A stretch of DNA of 20,351 nt. It comes from a virus. The notes beneath the pieces were generated by a model, which worked only from the letters and a program-made list of their open reading frames with translations, was not told where the DNA came from and made no database searches. Below are positions 1,210 through 11,865 of the stretch, piece after piece (the first letter of the stretch is position 1; each line of letters begins with the position of its first letter). The stretch lies in the IMG/VR virus record IMGVR_UViG_3300043409_000892, positions 1-20,351 of that record, one strand, 5' to 3'. A program made the position numbers and the translations under genes.

Positions 1210-2886
1210 TTAGAAATAAGTGGTGACAACTACGATGCCAGAATGTCCCGCTCCGCCTGCGCCAGAGTCCCCTACATTAAGCAATGAAGCGCCGCCGCCG
1301 CCGCCGCCGCCACCATAAAAGCCACCCGCGCCCCCGTTGCCCGCGTTGCCAGTGATTGACGACGCGCCGCCGCCGCCGCCGCCACCGCCTGCTGCTTGAT
1401 TGGCTGCTACATTGACGTTGGTGCCGCCATTGCCACCAGGAGCAATGCCAAGAACTGCCTGTCCTCCTGCAAGGAAGTAGCCAGACGTGCCGCCCGTGCC
1501 TCCGTTTGCGGCTGCCGGTGTTGCAGCGACTCCACCGCCCCCACCCCCGCCAGTAGCAGAGTTGCCACTTGTGCCACCCGATGCCCCTGCAGTGAGTGCA
1601 CCGGCCCCCCCGGTTGAGCCGGGAAACATAGCTCGCGTAGAGTTTGATGCAGCACCGCCCCCGCCGCTGGTAATTGTACCCCCAGCGCCGGGTTGTCCCC
1701 CAAAGGCAGCAACCAAAGTCCCAAAAGATGAATTGCCGCCAATCACGCCCACATTGCCGTTTGTCCCGCCGACAGGGTTGGTCGTGATTGCAGCCCCGCC
1801 AGTGCCACCTACGCCCACGGTCACCGTTTCAGTCGCGCCGCAGATGCCAGCCTGCAAAATCCGTTCCGAATAGCCTCCACCCATGCCACCTCCGCCGCCT
1901 GCGCCAGCAGTGCCAGATGGTGTCTTGCGCCCAGATCCACCACCGCCGCCACCAGACAAAAGAGCAACGTGCACCGCTTTTGCGCCTGCCGGTTTTGTCC
2001 ATGTAAAGGTGCCAGCCGTTGCGTACACGTCCACCTGCGCCTGTGCAGCTTTTGCCGCAAGTGCGTCAGTCAGCCCGCTGATTTTACTCTGCGCAATAGC
2101 CGCAGCCGCGTCCACGTCGGCATCCACCAGCAGGCTCGCAGGATTTTGGAGCACTCCTGCTGTATTCTTCCATAGCCCCGTGCCTCCAATTAAGCCAAGT
2201 GAGGTGTGGACGTGACTCGGTGTGTTGTCTCCGAACTGCGCCGTTACAGTGTGCCCGTTGGCTGTTGCAAGCGCCTCGATAGCAACGTAGATGCGATCCG
2301 TTGCAAGGATGGTCGTCTGCTCCACCAGCATCGACACCGAATACTGTTGCGACGTTGCCCCGATTGCCTGCACGGCAGACGTGCCCAGCGCGGTTAGCGT
2401 TGTGCCGTTGTAAATGTAAGCCTTGAGCCGGATGCTGTTGCTGTGGTTTTGGTCAGCAACGCCCAACGCCCAAATATTGAAGTCCCACAAGCCCGCAGGG
2501 ATGAGCGTCGTCGCGGGGTCTTGCGGAGTTGCCTCGCTCACAAAGCCAGTGACGAGCGTCCATGTGTCTGGCGTGAGGCTGCCGGTCGTCACGTCCACCT
2601 GCGTCACCTGCGCAGTGCGCCCCAATTGTTTAGGAGTGCCGGGAATGCCAGTCACGGGAGCGTCTGCGTCGGTGCTCTGGTTGAGGTAGTAAGTCAACCC
2701 GTTTGCTCCCCCGCCGCCCCCGCTCGATGGCGTAGCTGGTGCCCAAGCTGTGCCTGTCCACAAAAGCGTCTGCCCAGCGGTTGGCGCTGTTGCGGATACC
2801 GCGTTGCCCTTGAGCTTGTCCACCGAGGTTGAGTGCAGCCCGCCGGACACGTCGCCGGTGATGATTGGAGAGTTGAGAGAAGGCAT
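1210..2886 (-). CDS. Tail fibre / adhesin with glycine-rich C-terminal domain
   Basis: 558 residues. The N-terminus (1-50) is a fibre-type segment: SPIITGDVSGG, then SVDKLKGNAV and GQTLLWTGTAWAP. Residues about 60-235 form a predicted beta-rich domain (YYLNQSTDADAPVTG to HVHTSLGLIGG) of a type seen in phage fibres. A short helical linker (DADVDAAAAIAQSKISGL) precedes the C-terminal part. From about residue 285 to the end it is glycine-rich, opening with GTFTWTKPAGAKAVHVALL and then runs of 5-9 Gly. This is the known phage glycine-rich domain; in the S16 gp38 adhesin such repeats form a polyglycine-II helix bundle whose tip loops bind the receptor. The role, receptor recognition at the tail tip, is inferred. 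Several Gly runs use identical GGC codons. Confidence 0.85.
   Translation of the reverse strand: MPSLNSPIITGDVSGGLHSTSVDKLKGNAVSATAPTAGQTLLWTGTAWAPATPSSGGGGGANGLTYYLNQSTDADAPVTGIPGTPKQLGRTAQVTQVDVTTGSLTPDTWTLVTGFVSEATPQDPATTLIPAGLWDFNIWALGVADQNHSNSIRLKAYIYNGTTLTALGTSAVQAIGATSQQYSVSMLVEQTTILATDRIYVAIEALATANGHTVTAQFGDNTPSHVHTSLGLIGGTGLWKNTAGVLQNPASLLVDADVDAAAAIAQSKISGLTDALAAKAAQAQVDVYATAGTFTWTKPAGAKAVHVALLSGGGGGGSGRKTPSGTAGAGGGGGMGGGYSERILQAGICGATETVTVGVGGTGGAAITTNPVGGTNGNVGVIGGNSSFGTLVAAFGGQPGAGGTITSGGGGAASNSTRAMFPGSTGGAGALTAGASGGTSGNSATGGGGGGGVAATPAAANGGTGGTSGYFLAGGQAVLGIAPGGNGGTNVNVAANQAAGGGGGGGGASSITGNAGNGGAGGFYGGGGGGGGASLLNVGDSGAGGAGHSGIVVVTTYF
1291..1311 (-). repeat. (GGC)7 trinucleotide run inside the glycine-rich fibre
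   Basis: Seven identical GGC codons on the coding strand within an eight-Gly run. A (GGC)6 run lies nearby at 1366-1383, and another (GGC)6 lies in the second adhesin at 3409-3426. Confidence 0.8.
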
Positions 2887-3255: not shown

Positions 3256-4914
3256 TTAAGCAATAAAAGTTCCCGAAGTTAAAAATGTGTGAATCGTATT
3301 GCCACCAGCCGTTGTAACAGTGCCGCCTGTGCCACGTTGAGATCCCGCATATCTAATAATTACAATCCCAGATCCTCCCGGAGCCGCAGGAATTGAGCTC
3401 GCAGCGCTGCCGCCGCCGCCGCCGCCAGTGTTTGCAGTGCCAGCAACTGCCGATCCTGCAACATTAGTTCCGCCCCTGCCGCCGCCGCCATTTCCTCCGG
3501 CGCCAAAAACTCCAGCGTTTCCACCGCCGCCACCGCCGCCGCCGTAAAATAAAGCAGCCCCTGAAAATGAATTTGATGTTCCAACCCCACCATTCCCCCC
3601 TGCAACGCCACTTGTCCCGGCTGCGCCAGCACCGCCGCCACCACCACCGATAAAGCTGCCACTATTGGACCCTTGCCCGCCAGCAAAGCCTTGTCCTGTA
3701 GTGCCTGATCCGCCCGCCCCAATAGTGCCACTAGATGTGCCGCCTCCTCCCGATCCCCCGTTGCCTCCAGCAGCTCCAGATGATAGTCCACCACCTTTGC
3801 CGCCGCCAACGCTGGTACTTAAAACTCCAATCAAAGAGTTTGATCCATTTGTATCAACTGCCCCTCCAGCCCCTACTGTAATGGCATAAGACACTCCCCC
3901 GGTGAAGGTAACAGGCACTGCTAAAAGTCCGCCAGCTCCGCCGCCGCCTGCATTAGCAACTCCGCTAACTTGGCTTCCGCCGCCCCCGCCCCCTGCAACA
4001 ATTAAGGCATCTGCGGAATAGGAGACTGCTGCTGTTACAGAAGACAAGCTTGTTACTCTGCCCTTGGCGTCAATGCTTATGACGGGTATCTGCGTGCTGC
4101 TCCCCACATTGCTCTGCGCGGTCGTGATGGCTGCCAAAGTTGGCGCAGGATAAGCGCCTGCAAGGTCGCCGCTAGCGGTTGCAGTTGCTCCCAGCGCGCC
4201 AACTTGGGCGGCCGTTGGAAACTCATGTTGATGATCCGCACGGGCGGCAAATGTAGACAAGCCCACCACTGCGGACATTGACAACGCAGCGGGTGCCGTC
4301 GTCGATAGCCCTGCGATTTGAGTGGTCGTCAGAGCAGGGTTAGCCGCTGTAGTCAGCGCAGTAACACGCCCTTGCGCATCGGTGCTAATCACCGGGATCA
4401 CAAGCCCGCCTCCGACTGCGGTTTGTGGCGTGCCCACGTCTGGCATTGAGATCGTGCCGGAGTCCGTAATCGTCCCCCCGTCAAGCCCGGCGCCTGCAGT
4501 AATGCTGGTAACTGTTCCAGATCCACCACCACCACCACCACCACTGGCAACCAGTGCCCTGATGCTAATAAGTTCCCCCGCCGTCGGAGCCTCCACAAAC
4601 GTAATCGTGCCGCCTGCAGTTGAGGTCACCGCGTACTTACTAGGCGGCTGGTCGATGCCTCCCACGCTCACCAGGTAGCCGCCGTCGGCCGTGCCGTTGT
4701 AGCCCGTGAAAGTAAACGCCGTGGTTGTACCGTCGCCAGTGCGCTCGGTTGCCGTAGTGCCCGCTGCCGTCGGCGGGTTGAGCAAGAGCACAGCGCTGTC
4801 ACCGCCCAGGAATAACTCTCCGGTGGCGGTGTTGACGGCGAGCTCACCAACGGTCAGCGAGGTCGGCGAGCCCGTCGCCCCGCTCCTCTTTTTCGGGATG
4901 ATCGGGAAAGCCAT
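3256..4914 (-). CDS. Tail fibre with Mtd_N-like N-terminus and glycine-rich adhesin C-terminus
   Basis: 552 residues. Residues 1-45 (MAFPIIPKKRSGATG, then LTVGELAVNTATGELFLGG) match the N-terminal attachment motif of fibres such as the Bordetella phage major tropism determinant. Residues about 130-300 hold fibre repeats: two copies of IPVIS-D-A-x-GRVT (IPVISTDAQGRVTAL, IPVISIDAKGRVTSL), an ARADHQHEFP element and ASGDLAGAYPAPTL. Residues about 300-530 are very glycine-rich (runs of 4-8 Gly), ending GGSGIVIIRYAG, and the protein closes with IHTFLTSGTFIA, a common end for this domain. It is likely a distal fibre or receptor-binding protein. The N-terminus is homologous to that of the neighbouring fibre (4918-5859), suggesting both dock on the same baseplate partner or compete for it. 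Confidence 0.85.
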   Translation of the reverse strand: MAFPIIPKKRSGATGSPTSLTVGELAVNTATGELFLGGDSAVLLLNPPTAAGTTATERTGDGTTTAFTFTGYNGTADGGYLVSVGGIDQPPSKYAVTSTAGGTITFVEAPTAGELISIRALVASGGGGGGGSGTVTSITAGAGLDGGTITDSGTISMPDVGTPQTAVGGGLVIPVISTDAQGRVTALTTAANPALTTTQIAGLSTTAPAALSMSAVVGLSTFAARADHQHEFPTAAQVGALGATATASGDLAGAYPAPTLAAITTAQSNVGSSTQIPVISIDAKGRVTSLSSVTAAVSYSADALIVAGGGGGGSQVSGVANAGGGGAGGLLAVPVTFTGGVSYAITVGAGGAVDTNGSNSLIGVLSTSVGGGKGGGLSSGAAGGNGGSGGGGTSSGTIGAGGSGTTGQGFAGGQGSNSGSFIGGGGGGAGAAGTSGVAGGNGGVGTSNSFSGAALFYGGGGGGGGNAGVFGAGGNGGGGRGGTNVAGSAVAGTANTGGGGGGSAASSIPAAPGGSGIVIIRYAGSQRGTGGTVTTAGGNTIHTFLTSGTFIA

Positions 4915-9214: not shown

Positions 9215-10549
9215 TTAGATCACTCCAAGCTGTGGCATCACGCTGCCAATGTAAGGCTTGGACGTTGGCGCTGCTGCCTTGAGGAAAGCGTCGATTGAAT
9301 TGGCAATGCGCTGCTGCACTGCGAGTTGGTCACGCTGCACGTTTATAGATTCCTCCCCGCCCCATACTGCCCCGCCAAGGGCTCCAACCTTAGCGCCGCT
9401 AGTGGCAAGCATTGCGGCTGGGCCTTCTTTTCCAGCCTTGGGAATATAGGCTCCACTTGTGTCAGCCGCGCCTGGCGTCGGATTGGCTGCCCTAGCGGCG
9501 CCAGCAGTTGCCTCTTTTGACGCGTTAATTGCGTCCATGGCGTTTTGAATTTTTGCTTCGGTTTCTGTCGTGTCAAAAACAGGCCCGCCAGCCCTCGCTT
9601 GGATTTCAGCTTCTTGGATTGCTGCTTTTTGAGCGGCCTCGCCCTTAAAAACATTTTTTACCGATGCCGCCGTTTGTGCCATCAGCACTTTAATTTCTTC
9701 GGCCAAGAAATTAACTGCCCCTTGAAACGCCAGCTTCATGGTGTTGTAAATCAACTCACCAGTGGATCCAAAGTTGTTGAAATAGTTGATCCAGAAAGAA
9801 ATTGCCCCGCCAAATGCCTGCCCAATTTTGGACAAATCAATCTTTGCGGCCGCCTCAATAACCCCCATGAGCTGTGGCACAATCTCGGACGCAACTCCGA
9901 CAAAAAAGCCTTGGAGCTTGTCTCCTACTACGGACAAAAGGTCGCTTGCCTTGCCAAAAATCCCAGCGTTTTCGAGCATCAACGCCGCTTGATTTCCGAG
10001 CAGCTCGCGGACCTCGTCCATACCCCCAGCAGCAAAAACTGCAAGCAGCTTGGCCCCTTGTTTGCCGAAAATCTCCATTGCCATCGCGGAGCGTTGAGCC
10101 GGGTTTTCAATTTTGGAAATTGCCTGTCCCACTTTTGCCAACTGCTCGTCGGCTGTGAGTCCTTGGAGCTCGCTGATCTCCAACCCCATTTGCGAAAACT
10201 TTGAGGCCGCGTCCACGCTCCCACTGGCCGCTTCAGAAATGGACTTTTGCAGCTTTGCCAAAACCGGCTGCACCTGTTCAGCCTTCATCCCGTTCAAATC
10301 GAAGGCCAACTGAAGCTCCATCAGCTTGTCGATGGCAACGCCGGTTTGAGCGTTTAGGTCAACTAGGTCATCGCCCGCTTGGATGGCCCCGTAAAAACCA
10401 CGTGCGGCTGCTGCAAGCGCGCTAAACACAGCAGCGCCACCTACTACGTTTTGAATCATCGACCCAAGCCCTGCCATTGACGATTGCGCGCGGTTAATGC
10501 CACTGACAAAACCGCTGGTGTCTGCGCCGATCTGGATTGTGTTCGCCAT
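9215..10549 (-). CDS. Tail tape measure protein
   Basis: 444 residues, Ala-rich and mainly helical. The N-terminus (IQIGADTSGFVSGINRAQSS) is the typical tape-measure opening. It is followed by a hydrophobic segment (about 33-58, VVGGAAVFSALAAAARGFYG), the conserved pattern GDDLVDLNAQTGVAIDKLME and later ENPAQRSAMAMEIFGKQG. The protein sets tail length and is packed in the tail tube during assembly. It is short for the family: at about 0.15 nm per residue it would give a tail near 67 nm. The location right after the frameshifted chaperone gene and the 250-aa minor tail gene supports the call. Confidence 0.88.
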   Translation of the reverse strand: MANTIQIGADTSGFVSGINRAQSSMAGLGSMIQNVVGGAAVFSALAAAARGFYGAIQAGDDLVDLNAQTGVAIDKLMELQLAFDLNGMKAEQVQPVLAKLQKSISEAASGSVDAASKFSQMGLEISELQGLTADEQLAKVGQAISKIENPAQRSAMAMEIFGKQGAKLLAVFAAGGMDEVRELLGNQAALMLENAGIFGKASDLLSVVGDKLQGFFVGVASEIVPQLMGVIEAAAKIDLSKIGQAFGGAISFWINYFNNFGSTGELIYNTMKLAFQGAVNFLAEEIKVLMAQTAASVKNVFKGEAAQKAAIQEAEIQARAGGPVFDTTETEAKIQNAMDAINASKEATAGAARAANPTPGAADTSGAYIPKAGKEGPAAMLATSGAKVGALGGAVWGGEESINVQRDQLAVQQRIANSIDAFLKAAAPTSKPYIGSVMPQLGVI

Positions 10550-10554
10550 AATTT

Positions 10555-11307
10555 TTAACGAGAGAAAACGTCAGTGCGCCGAATTGCCCTAGCTGCGATG
10601 CCCGACACTAAACGGCGCCGCATCGCTTCTGCCTGGATGTCGTAAGCCTGCTGGAGTGCCCGCTGGATGGTTGCTGAGTCGGTGTGCTTGTTGGGATTTT
10701 TGGCGCGAAACGCCACAATATTTCCACTAACTCGAAGCGCTGCCGTTCCAGGGTTTTTGCTTTGCAGCCGTCCCACCCAGTCGGGAAAAATTACCCTAAG
10801 TCGAGTTGCGGCCTTGCACCACCCGGCGGCAGTGACTCCAATGGTACGCTCCAAAAGCGCCTCCACTTGTGCGCGTTTTGCTACCGTCGAAAAATGCTTG
10901 GGAGCGCTGTCTGGGTAGCGCTTGTCTGGCTTTTGGTGCTGCTTGATAAACTGCACCAGTGCCGAGGGAGAAGCTTCCAACTCTCTGGAAACAATCTCCA
11001 ACTGTTCGCGGCGTGCTGCTGTTCTGGCGCGATCCAACTGTCTTGCAATGGTTGCCTCATTTCGCATCACGAGTGCCTTGCGAAGTGAGTTCCTAATTGC
11101 TTTTTTAGACGCACGATACCCCGCGGCAAAGGTTCGCCCAGCCATTGGCGGTGTGTACTTAAACGCATTGCGTACCAGTCCGCGGGCCTGTTCCTCCACC
11201 ACCTCTTGCGTGGTTCTGCGCGTGATTGCAATTGAGCGTTGCAGGTAACGGTTAAACCGCGCCCCAAACTCACCCGCATTGGTGGTCACTCGGATTGCGT
11301 CACTCAT
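10555..11307 (-). CDS. Minor tail / tail-completion-like protein
   Basis: 250 residues starting MSDAIRVTTNAGEFGARFNR. It is strongly basic and helical in the first 110 residues, with EEQARGLVRNAFKYTPPMAG (about residues 37-56). The Q-A-x-x-L ... TPP pattern is reminiscent of lambda gpZ or HK97 gp10-like tail-completion proteins, but the similarity is weak. The ATG at 11307 overlaps the end of the frameshift product by 8 bases; the open frame extends further upstream (to 11385), but that part lies inside the chaperone C-terminal extension and is unlikely to be used. Its place between the chaperone and the tape measure gene supports a virion or tail-assembly role. Confidence 0.65.
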   Translation of the reverse strand: MSDAIRVTTNAGEFGARFNRYLQRSIAITRRTTQEVVEEQARGLVRNAFKYTPPMAGRTFAAGYRASKKAIRNSLRKALVMRNEATIARQLDRARTAARREQLEIVSRELEASPSALVQFIKQHQKPDKRYPDSAPKHFSTVAKRAQVEALLERTIGVTAAGWCKAATRLRVIFPDWVGRLQSKNPGTAALRVSGNIVAFRAKNPNKHTDSATIQRALQQAYDIQAEAMRRRLVSGIAARAIRRTDVFSR

Positions 11308-11865
11308 CGTCCTCGTCCTCCTCCTGCTGGCGGGGCATAAACAAACTTTCCAGTGCCACTTCCTTGCGACGCACGGTCCACGCACCGTTGCCCCATATCA
11401 CGGCGTGATAGATCCGCATGAGCTGCGCCAACGGGACCCGACGTTGTAAGTGGTCTTGTGTCCATCCTGTTTCACGCGCCAGCACCAAGAGGAACGATTC
11501 CTCCCAGCCTGGCGCCGTTAGTTTTTTGGCGCGTCCTCCCGTGTCTTGCCGGGCTGTGGCAGAACATCTACGCGGCCCGATTCTACGGCTTCGGCCTGCG
11601 CCCGGCACCATTCTGCCACCGGTTTTGCCAGCGCCAGCGGAAAGGCCCTTGTAAACGCCTTAATGGCACTCAACGCGGTGCCGTCGCTGATTGCCTGCTC
11701 CACGTCCTCCGGTTCGCGGCTTTGCAGCCACGCGCATGCAATCACCTGCTGCTGGTCGGACAGCTTTGCTAACTCCAGTTCGGAGATCGCAAACTGAGTC
11801 GTCATCGTCCATGGACGCAACTCAAGCGGCCCCACTTTGGTGTTTTTGAGAAAAAATGGGTTCAT
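11300..11865 (-). CDS. Tail assembly chaperone, long -1 frameshift form, GT-like
   Basis: Predicted 188-residue product made when ribosomes slip -1 on A AAA AAC at 11527-11521. After Asn115 reading continues with CTA ACG GCG (LTAPGWEESFLLVLARETGW) for 73 residues and stops at 11300. The extension includes RVPLAQLMRIYHAVIWGNG and an acidic end EEDEDDE. It has no plausible start of its own outside the overlap, and its frame is open through the whole overlap (11611-11518). In lambda the T extension recruits the tail tube protein to the gpG-coated tape measure. The stimulatory stem-loop and immediate stop are listed as a separate feature. Confidence 0.8.
11476..11527 (-). promoter_or_regulatory. 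Programmed -1 ribosomal frameshift signal (slippery heptamer, stop, nested stem-loop)
   Basis: Heptamer A AAA AAC at 11527-11521 in the 0 frame, followed at once by TAA (11520-11518). Five bases after the heptamer a stem starts: GCGCCAG (11515-11509) pairs with CTGGCGC (11482-11476), 7 bp. Inside it GAGGAA (11503-11498) pairs with TTCCTC (11494-11489) around a TCG loop. The spacer of 5 nt and a stable stem are the usual layout for stimulating -1 slippage. Confidence 0.85.
11518..11865 (-). CDS. Tail assembly chaperone, short (0-frame) form, G-like
   Basis: 115 residues, starting MNPFFLKNTKVGPLELRPWT, with helical content (AISELELAKLSDQQQVIACAW). It is located two genes before the tape measure gene, as lambda gpG. 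Translation in frame ends with GCG CCA AAA AAC TAA, so the stop directly follows an A AAA AAC slippery heptamer (11527-11521). It starts within the stop of the 141-aa gene (ATGA at 11865-11862). Chaperones of this family coat the tape measure protein and guide tube polymerisation; they are not in the mature virion. The sequence family is divergent, so the call relies on position, size and the frameshift site. Confidence 0.8.
   Translation of the reverse strand: MNPFFLKNTKVGPLELRPWTMTTQFAISELELAKLSDQQQVIACAWLQSREPEDVEQAISDGTALSAIKAFTRAFPLALAKPVAEWCRAQAEAVESGRVDVLPQPGKTREDAPKN

What the first reader, a model, noticed from the sequence alone, without database searches (positions are those of the whole stretch)
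11300..11865. Textbook-quality -1 programmed frameshift in the tail chaperone gene with the stop codon directly behind the slip site
Seen: A AAA AAC in the 0 frame, TAA as the next codon, a 5-nt gap, then a nested stem (7 bp outer, 6 bp inner). The -1 frame is open across the overlap and for 73 codons after it. Known: lambda G/GT and many siphophages use -1 slippage here to set the ratio of chaperone forms. Unusual: slip site, stop and stem are packed into 52 bases, so ribosomes that do not slip terminate at the base of the stem. This tight layout may tune the ratio in a host that apparently does not use Shine-Dalgarno stimulators.
Basis: partly seen in the sequence, partly recalled or inferred. 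Interest (0 to 1): 0.6.

Follow-up and report, generated by a model that had tools for sequence, protein, structure and literature searches.

The report
Phage tail-chaperone ribosomal frameshift signal
This is a built-in ribosome "slip" site that lets an uncultured phage, probably of Verrucomicrobiota, make a short and a long version of a tail-assembly helper protein from one gene; the trick is well known in phages, and here it is strongly confirmed by comparison with dozens of related viruses.

Summary
The slip heptamer A_AAA_AAC (11527-11521), the TAA directly behind it, a 5-nt spacer and a strong hairpin (11515-11476) fill 52 bases; the -1 frame stays open for 73 codons. It is a -1 programmed frameshift in a tail-assembly-chaperone gene upstream of the tape measure gene, of the lambda G/GT kind. 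In 82 compared regions (66 distinct) all keep X_XXA_AAC, with X = A, G or C. The hairpin beats protein-preserving recoding (z below -2) in 64 of 65 and shows compensatory changes. The extension is under purifying selection only in the -1 frame. The 0-frame stop lies on average 1.8 codons after the slip site, against 18 expected. A Verrucomicrobiaceae MAG encodes the same two parts as one in-frame protein. The "unusual" packing has a published precedent, Acinetobacter phage Loki. Gene starts here mostly lack Shine-Dalgarno sites, but an SD-like GGGAGGA sits 6 nt upstream of this slip site and is not conserved. The proteins match no Pfam or PHROG family and have no close relative among sequenced phage isolates. 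Verdict: new member of a known kind. The best open point is whether the abutting stop is a selected part of the signal.

The parts
11518..11865 (-). 0-frame ORF, short tail-assembly-chaperone form (G-like), 115 aa plus stop
   Evidence: ORF; 41-49 homologous loci; position before the tape measure gene
11521..11527 (-). slippery heptamer A_AAA_AAC in the 0 frame
   Evidence: read directly; X_XXA_AAC in all 66 distinct relatives
11518..11520 (-). 0-frame stop TAA directly behind the heptamer
   Evidence: stop directly behind in 53 of 66 distinct regions, otherwise 5-11 codons later and still before the end of the hairpin
11516..11520 (-). 5-nt spacer between heptamer and hairpin (overlaps the stop)
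11476..11515 (-). stimulatory hairpin: 18 bp, one 1-nt bulge, 3-nt loop
   Evidence: fold z -3.8; more stable than protein-preserving recoding in 64 of 65; compensatory changes
11300..11521 (-). -1 frame extension (T-like), 73 codons plus stop
   Evidence: pN/pS 0.225 in the -1 frame against 1.08 and 1.83 in the other frames
11534..11540 (-). SD-like GGGAGGA, 6 nt upstream of the heptamer; possible but not conserved stimulator
   Evidence: -9.8 kcal/mol against the anti-SD; at or below -6 in 27 of 69 distinct relatives, weaker than -3 in 19
10555..11307 (-). next gene (250 aa), overlapping the end of the extension by 8 nt; lies between chaperone and tape measure
   Evidence: ORF; no Pfam match
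9215..10549 (-). tail length tape measure protein, 444 aa
   Evidence: PHROG tail length tape measure families, best E 4.5e-17

Best explanation
This is a -1 programmed ribosomal frameshift signal in the tail-assembly-chaperone gene of a long-tailed phage, probably of Verrucomicrobiota. Most ribosomes read AAA AAC and end at the adjacent TAA, making the short form (115 aa). A minority, held at the hairpin with AAA and AAC in the P and A sites, re-pair both tRNAs one base back and read 73 more codons to give a long form of 188 aa. The two forms should help to assemble the tail around the tape measure, as lambda gpG and gpGT do. Shown by comparison: the signal, its conservation, selection on the RNA and on the -1 frame. 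Inferred: that slippage happens, its rate, and the chaperone function. Also inferred: the stop behind the slip site releases non-slipped ribosomes before they open the whole hairpin.
For: X_XXA_AAC in all 66 distinct regions, with X = A, G or C, and at least 6 changes of X on the tree, as tandem slippage predicts. Hairpin selected beyond coding with compensatory changes. -1 frame under purifying selection. Stop kept close: mean 1.8 codons against 18.0 expected; CTA at 52 of 70 junctions against 9% of CTN codons elsewhere. Same two parts fused in one frame, in the same gene order, in a Verrucomicrobiaceae MAG. One gene away from the tape measure gene, as in phage Loki.
Against: No expression data. 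G and T match no curated chaperone family, and the fold search was uninformative. The similarity of T to lambda T is only 14 residues. A_AAA_AAC slips much less than A_AAA_AAG in E. coli (PMC5009743), so the rate in this host is unknown. The counts over relatives are not independent.
Confidence: 0.93

Rival explanations
1. The long form arises from RNA polymerase slippage on the run of six A, not from ribosome slippage.
For: The window's own site has six A in a row.
Against: Relatives have GGGAAAC or CCCAAAC at the same place (22 of 66 distinct regions), without a long run of one base, and keep the codon phase X_XXA_AAC and the RNA hairpin.
Confidence: 0.03
2. The -1 frame extension is translated on its own from an internal start, as a separate protein.
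For: In the window the -1 frame holds an ATG 30 codons upstream of the junction.
Against: 34 of 69 distinct relatives have no ATG, GTG or TTG in that frame before residue 12 of T, and 23 have a stop within 6 codons upstream of the slip site. It would not explain the conserved heptamer.
Confidence: 0.02
3. The stop stays next to the slip site only because the short protein does not tolerate a longer tail; it has no role in frameshifting.
For: The stop lies outside the stem; a short G end would explain its position without any effect on the ribosome (inference). Stops can lie much further away in other phages (mean 26 nt in a training set, PMC10885494).
Against: Tails of 5-11 extra residues occur in 13 of 66 distinct regions, so some extra length is tolerated, yet no stop lies beyond the hairpin. 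In SARS-CoV-2, moving the 0-frame stop away lowers -1 frameshifting (PMC8168617).
Confidence: 0.5

Closest known systems
Phage lambda G/GT tail-assembly-chaperone frameshift
   Same: Short and -1 extended form upstream of the tape measure gene; lambda stop 5 codons after GGGAAAG; short local similarity of T, SFALKLAREMG against SFLLVLARETG
   Different: A-site codon AAC instead of AAG, strong hairpin, stop directly behind the heptamer, one gene between chaperone and tape measure; G not recognisably similar
Acinetobacter phage Loki gp12/gp13 (PMC5313236)
   Same: AAAAAAC immediately followed by TAA, hairpin 8 nt behind the heptamer, one gene between chaperone and tape measure
   Different: Extension of unrelated sequence; host genes with clear SD sites
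Caulobacter phages phiCbK (AAAAAAC) and Colossus (GGGAAAC), PMC3556154
   Same: Same slip sites before the tape measure gene
   Different: Stop position and hairpin not examined here
Verrucomicrobia phage P8625
   Same: Nearest cultured phage, major capsid protein 58% identical; gp18 lies directly before the tape measure gene
   Different: gp18 is one 206-aa frame without a slip site; its resemblance to G-T is weak

Membership tests
-1 programmed ribosomal frameshift signal | X_XXY_YYZ heptamer in the 0 frame | tested here: met
   A_AAA_AAC; X_XXA_AAC in all 66 distinct relatives
-1 programmed ribosomal frameshift signal | Stimulatory RNA structure a few bases downstream | tested here: met
   Hairpin after 5 nt, selected beyond coding, with compensatory changes
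-1 programmed ribosomal frameshift signal | Open, selected -1 frame behind the slip site | tested here: met
   73 codons, pN/pS 0.225 against 1.08 and 1.83 in the other frames
-1 programmed ribosomal frameshift signal | Fusion protein is made | not testable with these tools
   Needs mass spectrometry or a reporter
Phage tail assembly chaperone (G/GT type) | Gene close upstream of the tape measure gene | tested here: met
   One gene between it and the tape measure gene, as in Loki
Phage tail assembly chaperone (G/GT type) | Two forms with a common N-terminus, the longer by frameshift | tested here: met
   At the level of sequence only
Phage tail assembly chaperone (G/GT type) | Sequence match to a curated chaperone family | tested here: not met
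   No Pfam or PHROG match for G or T; such families are many and unlike each other, so this does not exclude the role
Phage tail assembly chaperone (G/GT type) | Chaperone fold | tested here: inconclusive
   G model pLDDT 80.5 with a beta hairpin and five helices; no informative match
Phage tail assembly chaperone (G/GT type) | G binds the tape measure, T binds the major tail protein; absent from the virion | not testable with these tools
   Needs experiment

The most novel reading that the evidence does not exclude
The 0-frame stop is itself a selected part of the frameshift signal: by releasing non-slipped ribosomes before the hairpin is fully opened, it keeps the structure folded for the next ribosome and makes the short-to-long ratio less sensitive to ribosome traffic. 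This would be a bacterial-virus counterpart of the effect measured for the SARS-CoV-2 stop codon.
Probability: 0.4. Interest if true: 0.5.

Novelty: new member of a known kind. Interest (0 to 1): 0.33.

Why it matters
It adds a protein family, unmatched in Pfam and PHROGs and without close relatives among sequenced phage isolates, to the known tail-chaperone frameshifts, with an unusually deep comparative record. The A-site codon is AAC in all 66 distinct viral regions, a type that slips poorly in E. coli, and the stop is always held before the end of the hairpin. The family therefore offers natural variants (stop at the slip site or 5-11 codons later, X = A, G or C, in-frame fusions) to test what sets frameshift rates in bacteria other than E. 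coli.

Tried and rejected
Queuosine idea: AAC slippage might be favoured if hosts lacked queuosine in tRNA-Asn. All six Verrucomicrobiota genomes tested carry tRNA-guanine transglycosylase, including those with AAC slip sites, so the idea found no support. Conserved SD stimulator: GGGAGGA is present in the window's own group but missing in others, with at least 7 changes on the tree. AAC is not universal in the wider family: two distant Verrucomicrobiota prophage-like loci (L161, L162) have AAAAAAG. Pfam and PHROG scans of both proteins, even at high E-values, gave nothing usable. Fold searches gave no known chaperone. The link of P8625 gp18 to this family stayed weak. RNAalifold on all 66 sequences recovered only 6 outer pairs, since the inner stem changes register between near and distant relatives; the two groups were then counted apart. 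The pN/pS figure for G is spoiled by a one-codon indel and is not used. An exact search for the 16S anti-SD found it in two of six genomes; some of these are draft assemblies, so absence says nothing.

Full report
What is there. The feature lies on the minus strand of a viral contig without a host genome. The 115-codon ORF 11865-11518 ends CCA AAA AAC TAA. The heptamer A_AAA_AAC is at 11527-11521, the stop at 11520-11518, and after five bases a hairpin runs from 11515 to 11476. The predicted fold is one 18-bp stem with a single bulged base and a three-base loop, -28.1 kcal/mol, z = -3.8. The -1 frame is open for 73 codons, down to 11300, and its end overlaps the next gene by 8 bases. After that gene comes the tape measure protein gene.

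Relatives. Scans of viral contigs gave 41, then 49, then 80 loci with the short protein or the extension. In all, 82 regions including the window were compared, 66 of them distinct in the 59 bases from slip site to stem. Every one has X_XXA_AAC: AAAAAAC 44, GGGAAAC 16, CCCAAAC 6. X changed at least 6 times on a protein tree, and the residue before the final Asn changes with it (Lys, Gly, Pro). This pattern fits re-pairing of the P-site and A-site tRNAs together. It speaks against polymerase slippage, which would need a long run of one base.

RNA selection. For each distinct sequence I recoded the extension with synonymous codons and folded the result. The natural hairpin was more stable at z below -2 in 64 of 65, mean z -3.15. 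In near relatives 97.7% of the cells of the 18 pairs form standard pairs. In distant relatives the outer 11 pairs show changes on both sides in 29 cells, against 9.2 after shuffling and at most 11 when the partners are slid. Related sequences are not independent, so these counts are not probabilities, but the slid controls keep relatedness.

Coding selection. In near relatives the extension behind the stem has pN/pS 0.225 in the -1 frame, against 1.08 and 1.83 in the other frames. Of 69 distinct relatives, 34 have no ATG, GTG or TTG in the -1 frame before residue 12 of the extension, and 23 have a stop within six codons upstream of the slip site, so independent initiation is not a general explanation.

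The stop. The 0-frame stop is directly behind the heptamer in 53 of 66 distinct regions, with all three stop codons used. In the others it follows after 5-11 codons, always before the hairpin ends. Against protein-preserving recoding the observed mean distance is 1.8 codons and the expected one 18.0. The first Leu codon of the extension, which overlaps the stop, is CTA in 52 of 70 cases, while CTA is 9% of CTN codons elsewhere in these genes. The stop lies outside the stem, so the stem does not explain this. For SARS-CoV-2, moving the 0-frame stop away from the slip site lowers frameshifting, and the authors propose that early release lets the structure refold before the next ribosome arrives (PMC8168617). 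The same logic may hold here, but a simple intolerance of the short protein for extra residues is not excluded.

Shine-Dalgarno. Gene starts in the window mostly lack SD sites (3 of 28 at or below -4 kcal/mol, background 25%). Phage P8625 is similar, while Loki, used as a control, shows clear SD sites. Some Verrucomicrobiota are described as SD-scarce (PMC10783764). Yet a strong SD-like GGGAGGA sits 6 nt upstream of the slip site in this window. It is missing in many relatives, so it is not a conserved stimulator, but it stands against the claim that this site works without one.

Host and in-frame relatives. The nearest cultured phage is P8625 of a Puniceicoccales (Verrucomicrobiota) host, with 58% identity in the major capsid protein. 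Matches to the extension occur in six of 387 Verrucomicrobiota genomes. One has AAAAAAC followed by TAG; others have GGGAAAC, CCCAAAC or AAAAAAG. A Verrucomicrobiaceae MAG carries two loci in which both parts form one open frame of 226 codons; in the locus read in full (L155) the gene order is the same. That supports the view that the two parts belong together as one protein. The scan of all GTDB species genomes found only this MAG, and no other phylum was searched by profile, so the host assignment is likely, not shown.

Known or new. The lambda-type tail frameshift is widespread (PMC5009743). AAAAAAC and GGGAAAC are known in Caulobacter phages (PMC3556154), and AAAAAAC immediately before the stop is described for phage Loki (PMC5313236), where I also find a hairpin. 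In E. coli A_AAA_AAC slips much less than A_AAA_AAG, so a family fixed on AAC is of some interest. Neither protein matches Pfam or PHROGs, and no sequenced phage isolate has a close relative. I file it as a new member of a known kind.

Noticed in passing
L155:1120-1770 and L157 (Verrucomicrobiaceae MAG): Both chaperone parts are encoded as one in-frame protein without a slip site, next to the same neighbour genes; how these elements make a short form, if they do, is open.
   Followed up: partly
window gene starts; L052 (P8625) gene starts: Shine-Dalgarno sites are no more common than background at gene starts, in contrast to phage Loki.
   Followed up: partly
L008:6001-6345 and L040:1-126 (contig IMGVR_UViG_3300043391_000200, 35,637 bases): The contig carries two non-identical copies of the chaperone region, one near each end (TGA and TAA behind the slip site); possibly a chimeric assembly.
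   Followed up: no
L154:4521-4530: CCCAAAAAAC directly before a 0-frame stop, with a long open -1 frame, in another gene: a possible second frameshift site.
   Followed up: no
window 1210-2886 and 3256-4914, minus strand: Two large proteins (558 and 552 aa) with similar glycine-rich C-terminal halves, likely tail fibre or adhesin proteins.
   Followed up: no
window 11862-11865: The upstream gene's stop overlaps the chaperone start (ATGA), suggesting coupled translation of a gene without an SD site.
   Followed up: no
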